DNA of 30,703 nucleotides from a virus. The notes under the pieces are model-generated. The model saw nothing but the letters and a program-made list of their open reading frames with translations, did not search any database and was not told where the DNA came from. The translations under genes were made by a program, and so were the position numbers. Below, one piece after another: positions 1-30,703 of the stretch (positions are counted from its first letter, which is position 1; each line of letters begins with the position of its first letter). The stretch is from IMG/VR virus record IMGVR_UViG_3300043438_000156, positions 1 to 30,703 of that record. One strand, 5' to 3'.

Positions 1-127
1 GAGCAAGCTCTCGGAACGCGGTAATCATTTCCGTTACGGCTGGCATAACTACAACGCCGATTTCTTCGCTTAGGTTCTCTAGCTCGATTCCTAGAAGTTC
101 AATCTGCCCGGCGAAGGTCTGAGCGTA
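1..127. repeat. Terminal direct repeat, left copy (assembly overlap)
   Basis: These 127 bases are identical to 30577-30703. Both copies lie inside the tape-measure gene, and joining them restores one uninterrupted reading frame. This is the signature of a circular contig closed by a k-mer overlap. The unique genome length is then 30576 bp. A physical terminal repeat in the virion is not implied. Confidence 0.95.
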
Positions 128-10574: not shown

Positions 10575-12098
10575 TTAGAAAAAGAAGTCGGGAACCATTT
10601 CTTCTATTCTACTGCTAACTGCTCTATCGAAGGCGATTACTGCGGCTACCGCTGCGTCAATCTTGCGGGGAGAATGACGGTTTTCTTTTACGATACGGAT
10701 TCCCAAGTTATCTATCTTCGTGACGGCGTTATCTAAGTGCCTTGAAAGAACTGGGCTTCCGTCGTGTTCTACGGTTCCGCCCGTGACTGCGTCGTAGAAC
10801 TTCGCGCAAGCTTGAACCATTCGCTTCGGTGAAGTCGAAGGCCACTCGACAATCGGAACTCCCCGGTCTGCTAGGACTTCCATAGAGCGTTGCCAGCGGA
10901 AAGGGTCGCAAGCTACTTCTCGGGTTTTCGGGTATTTCTGAATAAAGTTCATAATTGTTTCTTCGACTTCTTGAATATCTACTCGCCATAAGTCGTCGTG
11001 GATTGTTAGGTCTTTTTCCCATTCCTTGACTAGCCAAAGGAAAGGTTTTTCTTCTTCGGTCTTTGGAATTACGCAAGCAACTAGAACGGTACAGTCCCCG
11101 GAGAACGAGCCGTCAAATCCTAGAATGATTTCGTCGTCGGGGCTGGGTTCTCGTTCGCTCTTTAGTTCGTTCCAAGTTCCAGCCGGGAGCCAAGCGGTCT
11201 GCGAAGATACCCATTGGTTTAGTCGCTTGGTTCTAAACTCCGCTTCCGGTGTTCGCTTGACTGCGCTCTCGAAGTCTGCCTTATCTACCAAGTCATCAAA
11301 GCCCGGGTTAGCTTGCTCCCAAACTTTCGGGTCGCGGTGGTCGGCTTCGTCCGGTGCTGCCCACCAAGCCATAAAGAAAGACGGGTCTTTTACTTCTCCG
11401 CGCGAAACCTTCTGCCCATACTGAAACAAGTTGTAAGCGATTGAGTCGCCACCAGTCATATCCTTTTTTACTCCGGCGGTTGTGATTGCGATTAGCTGTG
11501 CGATACTTCCACGGTTTCCCATAGCCAAACTCATAACGTCAAAGAGTGAACGGTCTTTGTGCGCGTGTAATTCGTCGGCGATTACCCTATGCGGATTGTA
11601 TCCCTCTTTGGAAAAACTCTCAGCGGAAAGAACACGATAGACGGAGTTAGTTGCCGGAACGAATAGTGCGTCCCGGTAGACCTTGACCAGTTCCGATAGC
11701 TCCGTCGATTCGACGATTCTCTTAGCTTCACCGAACACGATTCGAGCCTGTTCTTTTTCGGCAGCGATTGAATAAACTTCCCCGCCGTCTATTCCTTCAG
11801 CAAGAAGAGAATAGAGTCCAAAGCTAACTGAAGCGAGCGCGCTCTTGCCATTTTTCCTCGGTTCCCCGATTAGGCAAGTTCTCGCAATAAGTCCCCCGTG
11901 TTCGTCCCGCGCGTAAACGTGCCGGATAAGTTCTTTCTGCCAGTCGCGTAGCTTTAGAGCGTCGCCGACCTTTCCAGCGATTCCGTCCTTACCGATAGTC
12001 CCAAAGGTTTCCGAGAACTCGATTACTATTTCTCCGTCGCCTTGTTCGATAGCTTTCTGCGAAACTGGAGTTAGCCATAGCGGGGGCCAACTATTCAC
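10575..12098 (-). CDS. terL: Terminase large subunit
   Basis: A 507-residue ATPase-nuclease that packages DNA. Walker A: GEPRKNGKS (78-86). Walker B: VIADE (172-176), with the catalytic Glu last. Coupling motif around 'IAITTAG' (203-209). RNase H-like nuclease: acidic residues D329 (LGFDGS), D398 (ACDPF) and D481 (KIDAAVAA). The sequence is of the HK97-like Terminase_1 type, consistent with cos packaging. The start is GTG 12098, overlapping the TerS stop by 8 bases. Full length with all key residues present. Confidence 0.95.
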   Translation of the reverse strand: MNSWPPLWLTPVSQKAIEQGDGEIVIEFSETFGTIGKDGIAGKVGDALKLRDWQKELIRHVYARDEHGGLIARTCLIGEPRKNGKSALASVSFGLYSLLAEGIDGGEVYSIAAEKEQARIVFGEAKRIVESTELSELVKVYRDALFVPATNSVYRVLSAESFSKEGYNPHRVIADELHAHKDRSLFDVMSLAMGNRGSIAQLIAITTAGVKKDMTGGDSIAYNLFQYGQKVSRGEVKDPSFFMAWWAAPDEADHRDPKVWEQANPGFDDLVDKADFESAVKRTPEAEFRTKRLNQWVSSQTAWLPAGTWNELKSEREPSPDDEIILGFDGSFSGDCTVLVACVIPKTEEEKPFLWLVKEWEKDLTIHDDLWRVDIQEVEETIMNFIQKYPKTREVACDPFRWQRSMEVLADRGVPIVEWPSTSPKRMVQACAKFYDAVTGGTVEHDGSPVLSRHLDNAVTKIDNLGIRIVKENRHSPRKIDAAVAAVIAFDRAVSSRIEEMVPDFFF

Positions 12099-12540
12099 GG
12101 TTAGCCTTCTTCGCCATTAGCTCTTCGAGCTTGCTCATTTTCTTTACTTCTGCCACGCCTAAGCGGGAACGGTCGGACGGGGTAAATCCAAGAAGCCCTA
12201 GATTCGAAACTATTTGCTTGTCCAGCTCTCGAAGTCCACGGCGGTCTTTCGGATTGTTGTCTGTCATTACACGCACTCGAAGATTCCAGCGTTCGTCGAT
12301 TAGCTCGCAAGTCATAAGAAGAATTTCTAGGTCGGTGTTCGGGCTTATCCAATTTATGCCGGACTGCCAAACCCTGTCCCAAAGTTCCTGCCCGTATTTG
12401 AGAAGTGGACGTGCGGGTTCTGGAGTTTCGCTTGCTTGCGAGATTAGCATTATTGCCGATTGCTCGGGCAGGGCGCGCTTGCCGGGATTGCCAGTCAATC
12501 GCTTTATCTCGGCTGGTTTAGTAGGTCGTCCCGCTGGCAT
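12091..12540 (-). CDS. terS: Terminase small subunit, P27 family
   Basis: A 149-residue DNA-recognition subunit. The opening (AGRPTKPAEIKRLTGNPGKR) is the signature of P27-type small terminases, and 'LGFTPSDRSRLGVAEVKK' near the C-terminus is likewise typical. The remainder is helical. Starts at ATG 12540 with GGAG upstream. The stop overlaps terL. P27-type terminases usually come with an adjacent HNH endonuclease, which is present upstream. Confidence 0.92.
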   Translation of the reverse strand: MPAGRPTKPAEIKRLTGNPGKRALPEQSAIMLISQASETPEPARPLLKYGQELWDRVWQSGINWISPNTDLEILLMTCELIDERWNLRVRVMTDNNPKDRRGLRELDKQIVSNLGLLGFTPSDRSRLGVAEVKKMSKLEELMAKKANRE

Positions 12541-12586: not shown

Positions 12587-12598
12587 CCCCTAAAGGGG
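12587..12598 (-). terminator. Short CCCC/GGGG hairpin at the end of the mom-like gene
   Basis: CCCC-TTTA-GGGG on the minus strand spans the TAG stop of the mom-like gene. The stem has only four strong pairs and no following T run, so it is at best a weak terminator or a 3' end stabiliser between the tRNA-like element and terS. Confidence 0.3.
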
Positions 12599-13360
12599 CT
12601 TGGAATCTAGCAGGTCGGAAGATTGGAGCAGTAGGGTCGGATTCGCACCGCCTTCTTCTGACCGGAAGTCAGACGCATTACTACTTATGCTTCTACCGCT
12701 TATGCCTTTATACATTGTAGCCCCTTGTTTGGCTATTTCTGTATAGGGTATTTCATCAACCGTTAGTTTAGTTCGGGATTCAGGGTCTATGAAATAGACA
12801 TACCGAAGCTGGAAACCCTGTAACGGAATAGCCTCACCCGAATCCAAAAGGTGTCTAGAGAAATAACGCCCGTTTACCTTTGGATAGTTTTCATTATCCA
12901 AAGTTTTTTTAGCCACTACACGTCCGTTCCAGAGAAGCATTTGTTGATTTTTCTTTATCTGGGTTAGTACGAAATTAGCGGCCCGGTAGATAGTCCCGTC
13001 CCCGCATTGAGTAGCGTCGGCAAAGCTAATAACCCATTTGACTTGAGGTGCGTGTTTCTTAATCAGCTTCATAGAAATAGCTAAAGCTCTAGATTCGCTA
13101 TATAGGGGAAGATTGTCGCTGAATGCCATTCGATTCAGCTCAACGAATTCAGTCCAACCCGTATCCTTTACCAACATTGAAACTCGACGTTTGTCTATCG
13201 AAGGGCCGAACTGTAATGCGCCTTCAAGTTTGCCACGATAAAAAACGCCTATGTGTATTTGGGAATTGGTTACGACCTTACCGCTGTAATGATATTTCTT
13301 TACAATCTCGTTAGCCTCTTTTGCCGAGATAGGTTTTAGGATTATTTCTTTTGCGCTCAC
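12590..13360 (-). CDS. mom: Mom-family DNA modification protein (adenine glycinamide-type)
   Basis: A 256-residue relative of phage Mu Mom, the GNAT-fold enzyme that converts adenine to an N6-carbamoylmethyl (glycinamide) form and so protects DNA from restriction. Family signature blocks: YHYSG (23-27), 'HIGVFYRGKLEGALQFGPS' (36-54), ELNRMAF (74-80), 'YSESRALAISMKLI' (87-100), SFADATQCGDGTIYRAANF (112-130) and 'LQGFQLRYVYFIDP' (180-193). The start is GTG 13360, overlapping the TGA of the ParB-like gene (GTGA). Residues after about 219 do not look like a folded domain: codons 221-246 contain a 76-nt glycine-tRNA-like sequence. Family assignment is firm; the exact base product in this phage is unknown. 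Confidence 0.9.
   Translation of the reverse strand: MSAKEIILKPISAKEANEIVKKYHYSGKVVTNSQIHIGVFYRGKLEGALQFGPSIDKRRVSMLVKDTGWTEFVELNRMAFSDNLPLYSESRALAISMKLIKKHAPQVKWVISFADATQCGDGTIYRAANFVLTQIKKNQQMLLWNGRVVAKKTLDNENYPKVNGRYFSRHLLDSGEAIPLQGFQLRYVYFIDPESRTKLTVDEIPYTEIAKQGATMYKGISGRSISSNASDFRSEEGGANPTLLLQSSDLLDSKPL
12624..12699 (-). tRNA. tRNA-Gly(UCC)-like element inside the mom-like gene
   Basis: A 76-nt cloverleaf with encoded CCA. Acceptor GCGGTAG/CTACTGC (7 bp, with G3:U70). D arm GCAT/ATGC with an 8-base loop. Anticodon stem TCTGA/TCAGA with loop CTTCCGG (U33, anticodon UCC). T stem GGCGG/CCG[A]CC (5 bp, one bulged A), loop TGCGAAT. Discriminator T, then CCA. Glycine identity elements G1:C72, C2:G71, C35, C36 and U73 are all present. 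Residues needed in translation are missing: A at position 8, no G18-G19 pair, G at 55 so that T-psi-C-G reads TGCG. These changes resemble staphylococcal non-proteogenic tRNA-Gly used by Fem transferases. It may be a glycine carrier for Mom, a decayed tRNA, or a non-functional imprint. Confidence 0.7.
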
Positions 13361-13953
13361 GGGGTTTCCCTAAAAAATTCAGCAATTCTAGCTAGTGCGT
13401 TTCCGTTGCTATTTTGATTTTCGTTAGTATCAAAATTACCCATAACCTTTGCTTTTGCTAGTGCTTCTTTTACGCTAATGGCTTGGTCTTCGGAAAGAAT
13501 AAAGGTCATTTGTTCGAAGGGAGATTTTTCGCCGATTGCGGTTCCCAATCCTGACCAGTCAATTTCCTCACTATCCGGTTCCACCTCAAACCCAATAGCG
13601 GAAACGTCAAAGTCCAAAAGCCGTAATTCTTGAATCTGTGCGTCTAGAACTTTTACGTCCCACGCCGCTAGTTCGGCAGTTCGATTGTCGGCTAGTGCGA
13701 ACGCTTTGGTCTGCTCCGGTGTCCAATCGCCCGGGACTCGAACGGCGTCAATCTTCAACCAGCCCAAACGCTTCGCCGCTTCAACGGTTCCGTTCCCGGC
13801 GACGATTACGCCCGCTTCGGTTATGACGATTGGCTTGCGTTGCCCGAACTGATTCAGCGAACCTTGAATAGCTTTTAGGTTCTTTTCGTCGTGTTGCCTA
13901 GCGTTAGCCGGGTCGGGCGTTAGGTCTTTGATTTGTAGGGTTTCGATTTTCAT
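13357..13953 (-). CDS. ParB-like nuclease-domain protein
   Basis: A 198-residue protein with an N-terminal ParB/sulfiredoxin-like domain. Motifs: 'LTPDPANARQH' (11-21), 'GQRKPIVIT' (37-45), GNGTVEAAKRLGW (53-65, the ParB box II equivalent with GNGT in place of GHGR) and 'ALADNRTAELAAWD' (86-99). The C-terminal third is acidic and of unknown fold. Such phage proteins bind nucleotides or DNA and often sit beside modification genes. Here it is translationally coupled to the mom-like gene (GTGA overlap). The start is ATG 13953 with AAAGG. A role in choosing or preparing modification sites is inference. Confidence 0.85.
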   Translation of the reverse strand: MKIETLQIKDLTPDPANARQHDEKNLKAIQGSLNQFGQRKPIVITEAGVIVAGNGTVEAAKRLGWLKIDAVRVPGDWTPEQTKAFALADNRTAELAAWDVKVLDAQIQELRLLDFDVSAIGFEVEPDSEEIDWSGLGTAIGEKSPFEQMTFILSEDQAISVKEALAKAKVMGNFDTNENQNSNGNALARIAEFFRETP

Positions 13954-14118
13954 TCTTGCGCCTTTCTAGGCTTCTAGAGTAGCACCAGAAAACCAACTAA
14001 TTTCGCGGGTGTTTACACGGAACTGCGGTCGGGGTTTTCGTTTGAAAAAATCCCCAGAAAATAGCCCGTCCCCGGGTAATGCCGGTAGGGGGTATAGGGG
14101 TAGCCGAGCGGTAGGAAT
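13954..14118. other. 165-base non-coding gap upstream of the ParB-mom-terminase genes (cos candidate)
   Basis: No reading frame is credible here. The gap holds an inverted repeat (GGGG-TTTT at 14031-14038 against AAAA-TCCCC ending at 14055), followed by GC-rich runs (CCCCGGG near 14070, then GGGGG and GGGG tracts up to 14100). Position beside an HNH gene and shortly before terS is where cos sites usually lie in actinophages. A late promoter is an alternative. I cannot define cohesive ends. Confidence 0.35.
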
Positions 14119-14457
14119 CTAGCGGGAACCGGGCAGGGGCTTATTGCTACGGCGTCTATTACAACTTCTATGAGCTGGAAGGAGTTGTCCAGTATCTCCA
14201 GAGCTGGCAGGAATTACGTGGTCAGCTTCGAATGGGTCATTTTCTTTTTTTCCTTCTCCGCATAAGTGGCAAGCAATCGCGTTCTCCCGGACTGCTCTAG
14301 CCCGTCGTGCGTAGTCCCCGCCATACTGTCCCGTCGTTGCCTTGCGCTGAGAACGTCTAGCTTCGTGAATTGCTTTGGCTTGCGCTTGATGTGGTTCGCA
14401 TAGCGGTTCGGGGGATAGGACTCCGCAGATACGGCAGGGCTTAGGGAACCTTCTAAT
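14119..14457 (-). CDS. HNH endonuclease, apparent ATT start
   Basis: A 112-residue HNH nuclease. It has a zinc ribbon at the N-terminus (PCRICG, then LCEPH) and a core of CHLCG, ADHVIPASSGDTGQLLPAH and RSCNRRRSNKP, so the H-N-H residues and zinc cysteines are present. The frame contains no ATG, GTG or TTG between the preceding stop and the core. The best start is ATT at 14457-14455, which gives M-RRFPKPCRICG, the expected N-terminus, and overlaps the TAG of the upstream gene (ATTAG). A GGGGAAA tract lies just before. HNH nucleases next to terminases help cos cleavage in HK97-like phages. Confidence 0.8.
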   Translation of the reverse strand: MRRFPKPCRICGVLSPEPLCEPHQAQAKAIHEARRSQRKATTGQYGGDYARRARAVRENAIACHLCGEGKKENDPFEADHVIPASSGDTGQLLPAHRSCNRRRSNKPLPGSR

Positions 14458-14623
14458 CTTTTCCCCAATCCTTTCCCTTGAACTGGATAGGTGGAGCGTC
14501 GAACACTCGAACCATTACTTGCGCGCAGTTGGCGCAGCCCGGCTTATGCTCTTCAGCTTCTACGCTTCGGGTAATGGTAATGGTCATAGGACAGTCAGGG
14601 CATTTGTATTCGTAGGTTGGCAC
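14453..14623 (-). CDS. FmdB-like zinc ribbon protein
   Basis: A 56-residue zinc ribbon. It opens VPTYEYKCPDC, matching the MPTYEY-x-C-x2-C start of FmdB-type ribbons, and carries the second knuckle CANC (30-33). The C-terminus is 'DAPPIQFKGKDWGKD', also usual for FmdB proteins. The start is GTG 14623, overlapping the TAG of the upstream gene (TAGTG). Its role in phages is not established. The size and zinc knuckles recall Mu Com, the activator of mom translation, but there is no sequence relationship I can see, so I would not call it Com. Confidence 0.8.
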   Translation of the reverse strand: MPTYEYKCPDCPMTITITRSVEAEEHKPGCANCAQVMVRVFDAPPIQFKGKDWGKD

Positions 14624-29129: not shown

Positions 29130-30703
29130 TACGCACCCTGCCAGACCGCGCCTGAAGTTCTTTCGTAAGCCTTGATAGCGTCAACGATTGCTTTTCCAAT
29201 AGTCGCTCCGGAACCGACTCCACCTTCTACATTTATGTTGTAAACGCTTTGCTGAGTTGTGTTATTGAATCTGGACTGGGTTCCGGTCATACCGATTTCG
29301 GAACCTAGAGTCTGGATTTCTCCGAAGCCCGCGTTTATTCGTCCGAGCGCGTCCGCTCCCCCAGCTACTAGCCCTGCCGCTAGACGTGCGCCCGCAACTG
29401 GCCCAGCCGAAATTACTTGCTGAAGTAGTGCCGGGTCTAGTCCCATAGAAGCTAGCTTGGTAATGTTTCCTGAGAAAGACTTTACCCGGGCTAGGAGCTT
29501 GTCCATATTTCGAATAATTGAATCAGTCGAACCGCCTAGCTCGGGAAGGCTAAAAGCTCCAACGATTGAGTCTTTGATACTAGAGAATATGCTAGTGACT
29601 GAATCGCTAAAGGACTTGTAAATTCTTTCGCGTTCGTCCGTAGCTGCTTTTTCTGAAGCAATAAGTTCATCACGTTTTCTATCCGCTTCTTGTTGGTCGG
29701 CTAGGATTTGGGCGTTAGTTGCTTCGGTCTGAGCTTTGATTTCTGCGATACCCGCGGCGGTCTTGTTGAACTTATTTTGAGTCTTAGTAGCTAGAGCTGT
29801 GTTGCCTTGTGCGATTTTCTTAGCTGTTGCTAATCCCTTAGTTCCGCCTAGAAGGTCTGCCGCCAATCCTTCGGAGATACCGCTCTTAGTAGTTAGTTTG
29901 GTAAATAGTTTTTGATTTTTTACCGCTGCGTTTAGAGTTTGAGCATAAGTCTTTTGTTGAGCACCGGCATTTTTATTATTTAGGTCTGGTGTAATAACGC
30001 TCGGAGTAAAAGCGGCAACTTTAGCGTCGAAGTTTGAACCGCCAAAAGAATCTGCTATGTCGCTAGCAGAACGTCGTGGAAGCGGAGCAACAGAAACCGC
30101 AGAATTGAATTTATTTATAGCGTCTGTCGCTACACCGTATTTACCAGCTGCCCATTCTGCGTCTTTTCCAGAATTTAGAACCGCTGTTCCAAAGCTGGTA
30201 ACGACTGGCGTAGTTTTTCGATAAGAACTGTCTACTTCAGTTGCGCCTTGAATTATGAATCCCAAAGCAACAACGAACGCGCCTATTCCCGTGGTAATCA
30301 AAGCAGCTCTGAATAATTTCAAAGCTCCAGTAGCGGCACCAACAACTCCAGTAGTTGCTCCAAATGTTGCGTTTAGAATTACAGCGGCAGCATTGTAAAG
30401 ACCAACCGCAACTTTACCTAAGTTGTAAGCGGTGTTTAGAAGATAAATACCCGTGACGACTTTGATAATCGCTTCAGCGTTTTGAACTAGGAAAATAAAA
30501 ACGTCTGAAATTGTTTTAGCGAATGCTTTTAGGTCTACCGATTCAAGCGCCGCTTTTAGCTTGGAACCGATTTCTGGAGCAAGCTCTCGGAACGCGGTAA
30601 TCATTTCCGTTACGGCTGGCATAACTACAACGCCGATTTCTTCGCTTAGGTTCTCTAGCTCGATTCCTAGAAGTTCAATCTGCCCGGCGAAGGTCTGAGC
30701 GTA
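29129..30703 (-). CDS. Tail tape measure protein, C-terminal part (continues from 1-763)
   Basis: The remainder of the tape measure protein; the first 27 codons (30703-30623) repeat those at 127-47. It contains a membrane-like segment ('LFRAALITTGIGAFVVALGFII', abbreviated) that may enter the host membrane, a Lys/Gln-rich helical region and a C-terminal 'NINVEGGVGSGATIGKAIVDAIKAYERT'-type end common in actinophage tape measures (motif YNINVEGGVG). The stop TAA overlaps the distal tail gene start. Confidence 0.9.
   Translation of the reverse strand, partial: YAQTFAGQIELLGIELENLSEEIGVVVMPAVTEMITAFRELAPEIGSKLKAALESVDLKAFAKTISDVFIFLVQNAEAIIKVVTGIYLLNTAYNLGKVAVGLYNAAAVILNATFGATTGVVGAATGALKLFRAALITTGIGAFVVALGFIIQGATEVDSSYRKTTPVVTSFGTAVLNSGKDAEWAAGKYGVATDAINKFNSAVSVAPLPRRSASDIADSFGGSNFDAKVAAFTPSVITPDLNNKNAGAQQKTYAQTLNAAVKNQKLFTKLTTKSGISEGLAADLLGGTKGLATAKKIAQGNTALATKTQNKFNKTAAGIAEIKAQTEATNAQILADQQEADRKRDELIASEKAATDERERIYKSFSDSVTSIFSSIKDSIVGAFSLPELGGSTDSIIRNMDKLLARVKSFSGNITKLASMGLDPALLQQVISAGPVAGARLAAGLVAGGADALGRINAGFGEIQTLGSEIGMTGTQSRFNNTTQQSVYNINVEGGVGSGATIGKAIVDAIKAYERTSGAVWQGA
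30577..30703. repeat. Terminal direct repeat, right copy (assembly overlap)
   Basis: Identical to bases 1-127; see the left copy. Counting it once gives a 30576-bp circle. Confidence 0.95.

What the first reader, a model, noticed from the sequence alone, without database searches (positions are those of the whole stretch)
14119..14469. HNH nuclease gene without ATG, GTG or TTG: probable ATT start
The frame carries a clear HNH nuclease, yet from the upstream in-frame TAA through to the HNH core no usual start codon exists. ATT at 14457 overlaps the FmdB-like stop (ATTAG) and gives an N-terminus directly before the zinc ribbon. ATT starts are rare (infC is the known case) and can limit expression. 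A +1 frameshift from the FmdB-like frame is the alternative.
Basis: seen in the sequence. Interest (0 to 1): 0.55.

Follow-up and report, generated by a model that had tools for sequence, protein, structure and literature searches.

The report
Phage nuclease gene starting with ATT
A small DNA-cutting (HNH) gene in a phage genome has no normal start codon; in this and 15 related phage sequences it very probably begins with the rare start ATT, which shares its last letter with the stop codon of the gene before it, so the two are probably translated one after the other.

Summary
Confirmed and strengthened. The HNH frame (minus strand, stop 14121-14119) has no ATG, GTG or TTG anywhere. ATT 14457-14455 overlaps the FmdB-like stop as ATTAG. 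It is not a sequencing error: 15 contigs with 15 other metagenome ids carry the same junction, while the gene is under purifying selection (median dN/dS 0.13). At or within 6 codons of that site, 14 of 14 other relatives with an N-terminus and 60 of 60 examined relatives have ATG, GTG or TTG. In two lineages a gene lies between FmdB and HNH; there FmdB ends GAC TAA and HNH starts ATG or TTG. So ATT is very probably the start; a +1 frameshift fusion is unlikely. Likely mechanism: ribosomes ending FmdB at UAG re-initiate on the overlapping AUU; in part of the other relatives FmdB and HNH also touch or overlap. A putative cos lies about 85 nt beyond, with terminase genes on its far side, so a packaging role fits. 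AUU starts and stop/start overlaps are known; the conserved ATTAG junction looks like a new variant. There are no protein or ribosome data.

The parts
14119..14457 (-). HNH nuclease gene, 112 codons plus stop; proposed start ATT 14457-14455, stop TAG 14121-14119; Cys/His ribbon, then HNH motif
   Evidence: dN/dS
14453..14457 (-). ATTAG: HNH start (ATT) sharing its last T with the FmdB-like stop (TAG)
   Evidence: same in 16 of 16 aligned junctions, (rows chosen because they have ATT)
14453..14623 (-). FmdB-like zinc-ribbon gene, 56 codons, start GTG 14623-14621, stop TAG 14455-14453
   Evidence: Zn_ribbon_8 32.4 bits, below its 34.4 cut-off; phrog_1076 FmdB-like, E 1e-7
14467..14475 (-). GAAAGGAUU, best anti-Shine-Dalgarno pairing before ATT (-5.7 kcal/mol, spacing 9); GGGGA (14466-14462) lies next to it
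   Evidence: GGA of FmdB Gly54 the same in 14 of 14 rows
14441..14468 (-). possible hairpin TTGGGGAA / TTCCCTAA with ATTAG in the 12-nt loop; not supported by stability or covariation
   Evidence: z-score 0.84, 159 of 200 shuffles fold at least as well; 96.2% of cells pair, 0 compensatory changes
14024..14033 (-). CCCGACCGCA, putative 10-nt cos overhang about 85 nt after the HNH stop
   Evidence: inferred from contig ends
10575..13953 (-). genes beyond the putative cos: ParB-like (13357-13953), Mom-like (12590-13360), terminase small (12091-12540) and large (10575-12098) subunits

Best explanation
The HNH gene is translated from the near-cognate start AUU at 14457-14455. The codon overlaps the UAG stop of the FmdB-like gene (AUUAG), and HNH is most likely made by termination-reinitiation: a ribosome (or its 30S subunit) that stops at UAG is already placed over the AUU and restarts there with initiator tRNA, helped by G/A-rich Shine-Dalgarno-like sequence inside the end of FmdB. 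In this register the third base of the start must be the T of TAG, so ATG, GTG and TTG are impossible, and of the NTT codons ATT is the plausible one (inference). The expected result is low, FmdB-linked output of an HNH that may assist terminase at the neighbouring putative cos. Shown: sequence, conservation, homology of the start site, purifying selection. Inferred: AUU initiation itself, coupling, low level, packaging role.
For: 1) Start homology: 14 of 14 non-ATT relatives with an N-terminus and 60 of 60 relatives examined (23 exactly at the codon) have ATG, GTG or TTG at or within 6 codons of the site. The 60 repeat 8 contigs and many are near-identical. 2) ATTAG in 16 records while dS from the window reaches 1.76. 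3) Natural contrast: L003 (HNH 98% identical to the window; grouped with it, support 0.842) and L014 (sister of L010, 0.945) have a gene between FmdB and HNH; FmdB there ends GAC TAA, HNH starts ATG or TTG. 4) Wobble signal: GAT is 115 of 454 Asp codons in 44 window genes, yet the last FmdB Asp is GAT in the 16 and GAC in L036, L041, L049, L050. In 14 FmdB rows, of 20 residue-invariant degenerate codons only Tyr6, Gly54 and Asp56 keep one codon. 5) FmdB and HNH also touch or overlap in other relatives: -4 (9), -1 (5), 0 (2), +1 (1), -8 (L191; L018 and L029). 6) SD-like pairing at the ATT sites is -5.5 to -7.3 kcal/mol, against a median of -5.05 for 44 window genes and -1.5 for L003 and L014. 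7) Published cases, passages only: re-initiation in E. coli (PMC2268962), AUU start of Borrelia PncA (PMC13398362), infC ATT and Streptomyces sigR GTC (PMC5472188).
Against: No protein or ribosome data. AUU is a poor start that IF3 discriminates against; PMC2268962 (passages) reports that extra IF3 lowers re-initiation about threefold even at AUG and that it is inefficient without an SD, so re-initiation need not excuse a bad codon. 4 of 16 members have a canonical codon at -15. The rows were recognised by ATT, so '16 of 16' is partly definitional. L079, a more distant FmdB, also has GAT (GKDR, stop TAA) without ATTAG, and L018, L029 and L191 have GAT with an ATG start. Of 83 entries (window + 82 loci), 22 have FmdB 57 nt or further upstream and 29 none by a simple motif (4 of these, L005, L013, L018, L029, do have one touching), so coupling is not universal. 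The SD-like position varies (spacing 4, 9 or 13).
Confidence: 0.72

Rival explanations
1. A programmed +1 ribosomal frameshift at GAT/TAG (or AAA G) joins FmdB to HNH, so HNH is made only as a C-terminal extension.
For: HNH lies in the +1 frame of FmdB and a stop follows GAT; GATTAG is the same in 16 of 16 rows; a slow UAG could stimulate a shift (inference).
Against: Asp tRNA would have to re-pair from GAU to AUU with two mismatches (inference); the Lys codon that could slip is AAA in 12, AAG in 3, AGA in 1 of 16; relatives with a gene between FmdB and HNH, or without a touching FmdB, have ATG, GTG or TTG at or near the same codon; the -1 heptamer G GGA AAA leads to the other frame (read).
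Confidence: 0.08
2. HNH is expressed from AUU by ordinary de novo initiation at its own Shine-Dalgarno, not coupled to FmdB.
For: SD-like pairing is slightly better than the median of other window genes.
Against: In the loci examined an ATT without a nearby canonical codon occurs only where the stop overlaps; when another gene lies between, the start is ATG or TTG.
Confidence: 0.12
3. Translation starts further upstream, inside FmdB, at a non-canonical or, in some members, canonical codon.
For: 4 of 16 members have TTG or ATG at codon -15; ATT or GTT stands at codon -4.
Against: 12 of 16 have no canonical codon upstream of the ribbon; codon -4 is GTT in several; homologues start at the ATT codon.
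Confidence: 0.06
4. The start was lost and HNH is a dying pseudogene, or the base is a sequencing error.
For: No canonical start.
Against: 15 further contigs with the same junction; median dN/dS 0.13; ribbon and HNH residues invariant in 24 aligned sequences.
Confidence: 0.02

Closest known systems
infC (IF3) AUU start and other near-cognate starts (Borrelia pncA AUU, Streptomyces sigR GTC)
   Same: Conserved non-canonical start at the place where homology puts the N-terminus; IF3 sensitivity would be expected
   Different: A phage nuclease gene; the ATT is tied to a stop/start overlap; no expression data
Termination-reinitiation coupled gene pairs (ATGA, TGATG, TAATG)
   Same: Overlapping stop and start on one strand, SD-like sequence inside the upstream gene
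   Different: The overlap is ATTAG, a -5 register that forbids NTG starts; the passages of PMC12548453 and PMC6728339 that I saw name NTGA, TGATG/TAATG and NTGNNTGA as the common ones
Phage packaging HNH nucleases (HK97 gp74)
   Same: Small HNH near terminase genes and a putative cos
   Different: No assay; sequence relation to gp74 was not tested

Membership tests
Genes with a near-cognate AUU start | No canonical start possible for the conserved N-terminus | tested here: met
   none in the window's whole frame; 12 of 16 members none upstream of the ribbon, 4 of 16 have one at codon -15
Genes with a near-cognate AUU start | Codon aligns with start codons of homologues and is conserved | tested here: met
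Genes with a near-cognate AUU start | Protein or ribosome evidence of initiation there | not testable with these tools
   no expression data held
Termination-reinitiation gene pair | Start and stop codons overlap or lie very close | tested here: met
   ATTAG
Termination-reinitiation gene pair | SD motif inside the upstream gene (usual, not required) | tested here: inconclusive
   moderate pairing, spacing 4, 9 or 13 among members
Termination-reinitiation gene pair | Downstream output depends on upstream translation | not testable with these tools
   needs reporters
Programmed +1 frameshift fusion | Conserved slippery codon with good +1 re-pairing | tested here: not met
   AAA 12, AAG 3, AGA 1 of 16; GAU is conserved but re-pairs badly on AUU (inference)
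HNH endonuclease (PF01844) | Score above the family cut-off | tested here: met
   22.9 bits vs 21.4; relatives L018 and L029 had no Pfam match up to E 0.01
HK97 gp74-like packaging HNH | Gene near terminase genes | tested here: met
   TerS and TerL at 12540-10575, with ParB-like and Mom-like genes between
HK97 gp74-like packaging HNH | cos packaging | tested here: inconclusive
   cos inferred from contig ends only
HK97 gp74-like packaging HNH | Stimulates TerL cleavage at cos | not testable with these tools
   gp74 activity seen in passages of PMC9410871; needs biochemistry

The most novel reading that the evidence does not exclude
A stop/start overlap can free a phage gene from the need for an NTG start: re-initiating ribosomes accept AUU because UAG places them on it, and the AUU has been kept by selection across this lineage as a built-in brake on the packaging nuclease, possibly sensing host IF3.
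Probability: 0.35. Interest if true: 0.65.

Novelty: new variant of a known kind. Interest (0 to 1): 0.5.

Why it matters
Gene finders that allow only ATG, GTG and TTG (general knowledge) cannot call this gene in 9 of the 16 records, where the frame holds none of these (one of the 9, L032, is incomplete). The lineage offers a natural allele series (ATT, ATG, TTG on nearly the same gene) to test whether re-initiation relaxes start-codon choice. One study counts 1 switch to AUU among 61,358 ancestral AUG starts and 1 among 5,080 GUG starts (PMC5622118, passage), so a conserved AUU start is rare.

Tried and rejected
Start at ATT 14469: rejected, relatives have ATT or GTT there. Start in the 84-aa TTG frame (14468) plus a -1 shift: no fitting slippery site found by eye. 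RNA hairpin around ATTAG: z-score 0.84, no compensatory change; left as a possibility. Host: the one genome-contig scan gave a single locus, L195 (22 residues matched, Clostridia MAG), not followed; host not identified. Among 50,697 phage records only phiPsal1 of Pontimonas matched. Solved structures: two weak hits, 8k3f (E 0.0045) and 5h0m, an HNH (E 0.0063). No Pfam match for the intervening gene of L003. A scan for the degenerate ATTAG junction found 14 contigs, all already held (the pattern itself contains ATT and misses L013).

Rows left out: fragments L015, L026, L027 (29 of 32 read, plus L001 and the window), the 17 loci L115-L131 of contigs already held and fragments L143, L166, L186 (60 of 80 read; the 80 are the best of 535). 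dN/dS: 14 of 16 members (L031, L032 incomplete), 84 of 91 pairs usable. Codon table: 14 of 16 rows (L005, L013 missed by the motif).

Literature searches: 16 papers; 3; 22, 20 listed; 53, 30 listed, mostly mitochondrial genomes; 172, 15 listed; 121, 20 listed; 2; 39, 15 listed; 0. In these listings I saw no report of a conserved ATT start in a phage gene; the library holds open-licence papers only. All cited papers were seen as passages.

Full report
Observation. The HNH frame runs on the minus strand from TAA (14517-14515) to TAG (14121-14119) with no ATG, GTG or TTG in 19 + 112 codons. ATT 14457-14455 overlaps the stop of the FmdB-like gene as ATTAG. The product has a Cys/His ribbon and an HNH motif (PF01844; ten HNH PHROGs). 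An absence of these three codons over 112 codons would occur by chance in about 4% of cases, so the absence alone proves little.

Relatives. A viral-contig scan with the protein gave 32 loci. Of these, 29 hold the N-terminus: 15 have ATT in the same ATTAG junction (L002, L004-L013, L016, L017, L031, L032) and 14 have a canonical start at or close to the same codon (L003, L014, L018-L025, L028, L029, L030, L033). With the window that is 16 ATT members; the 15 contigs carry 15 different metagenome ids, though L017 and L031 are identical where they overlap. The phiPsal1 gene has an ATG one codon before the aligned site. A wider scan returned the best 80 of 535; after leaving out 17 loci of contigs already held and 3 fragments, 60 remained, and all 60 have ATG, GTG or TTG between codons -6 and +6 of the site, 23 exactly at it. 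Eight of the 60 repeat contigs (L133-L139, L164), and many are near-identical. In L188 and L193 an ATT stands where kin have ATG, but an ATG follows three codons later.

Selection. Among 14 full-length ATT members the median dN/dS is 0.13 over 84 usable of 91 pairs, highest 0.31; dS from the window reaches 1.76. The ATT has persisted while synonymous sites approached saturation. Twenty-five protein columns, including Cys, His and Asn residues of ribbon and HNH motif, are invariant over 24 sequences.

The natural contrast. L003 and L014 carry an extra gene (80 and about 86 codons) between FmdB and HNH. There FmdB ends GAC TAA and its stop overlaps the extra gene's ATG (TAATG); HNH starts ATG in L003 (TAATG) and TTG in L014 (TTGA). 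On the HNH tree L003 groups with the window (support 0.842) and L014 with L010 (0.945), so the start codon differs at two separate places of the tree together with the neighbour; the direction of change is not settled. L049 has GAC GCA TGA with the ATG of HNH in the overlap; L050 has GAC GCA TAA without HNH directly after. In L018 and L029 the register is ATGGGTAG and the start is ATG.

Codon-level signal. GAT is a minority Asp codon (115 GAT, 339 GAC in 44 window genes), yet the overlap has GAT in all 16. In 14 aligned FmdB genes, 20 codons encode one residue throughout and could vary silently; 17 do vary, and Tyr6 (TAC), Gly54 (GGA) and Asp56 (GAT) do not. Because the members are recognised by ATT, GAT in 16 of 16 is partly definitional; the GAC cases and the natural contrast are the independent evidence. 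Against it, L079, a more distant FmdB, has GAT without ATTAG, and L018, L029 and L191 have GAT with an ATG start.

Mechanism. In 83 entries (window + 82 loci) checked with a simple motif, the FmdB-like stop lies at -5 in 14, -4 in 9, -1 in 5, 0 in 2, +1 in 1, -8 in 1, at 57 nt or more upstream in 22, and is not recognised in 29. Of those 29, one search shows L005 and L013 at -5 and L018 and L029 at -8, which leaves 25. So FmdB and HNH are often, not always, joined stop to start, which fits termination-reinitiation. SD-like pairing is moderate. A hairpin with ATTAG in its loop is possible but unsupported. The frameshift alternative lacks a conserved slippery site with good re-pairing and clashes with independent starts at or near the same codon in relatives. 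AUU initiation, coupling and IF3 effects are inferred from published cases seen as passages (PMC2268962, PMC5472188, PMC13398362, PMC6728339, PMC12548453); PMC2268962 also warns that extra IF3 lowers re-initiation even at AUG.

Context. The window has a 127-bp terminal repeat, i.e. a circular assembly of about 30.6 kb. Of 25 loci listed, 12 end 54-111 nt after the HNH stop, 2 at 225-230 nt and 11 run on. Two long linear contigs (G001, 31.3 kb; G003, 32.4 kb) have HNH at one end and the ParB-side sequence at the other, and neither end shows CCCGACCGCA; five ATT contigs that run through (L002, L005, L007, L009, L010) and the window contain it, while L016 and L017 have one-base variants. G002 has it near both ends with odd flanks, and L013 also reads past it. 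This suggests a cos with a 10-nt 3' overhang at window 14033-14024 (inference). HNH would then be the last gene at one end, with ParB-like, Mom-like, TerS and TerL genes at the other. HK97 gp74, an HNH, promotes cos cleavage (PMC9410871, passages), so a packaging role is the best guess.

Verdict. ATT as start: very likely. Coupled re-initiation: likely. Frameshift: unlikely. A new variant of known kinds.

Noticed in passing
window 14024-14033: Putative 10-nt cos (CCCGACCGCA, minus strand) between HNH and the ParB/Mom/terminase genes; contigs of relatives end near here, three followed by what looks like the start of a sequencing adapter (adapter recalled; L011 shows AGAT only, L021 AGATCGG, L154 AGATCGGAA).
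   Followed up: partly
window 1-127 and 30577-30703: 127-bp direct terminal repeat: the record is a circular assembly.
   Followed up: no
L003 about 2259-2501, L014 about 2238-2498: Extra gene of 80 to 86 codons between FmdB and HNH in two lineages; the L003 copy has no Pfam match.
   Followed up: partly
L001 2492-2803 (phiPsal1, MG835450): HNH homologue with an ATG start has no CDS of its own in the record; a short hypothetical CDS in another frame is annotated there.
   Followed up: no
L188 and L193, 1501-1503: ATT where close kin have the first ATG of HNH; an ATG three codons later could serve.
   Followed up: no
L032 about 2660-2739: Contig end seems to run into the reverse strand of FmdB, probably an assembly artefact (translation).
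   Followed up: no
window 12590-13360: Mom-like DNA modification gene (PF25680, 188 bits) between a ParB-like gene and the terminase genes.
   Followed up: no
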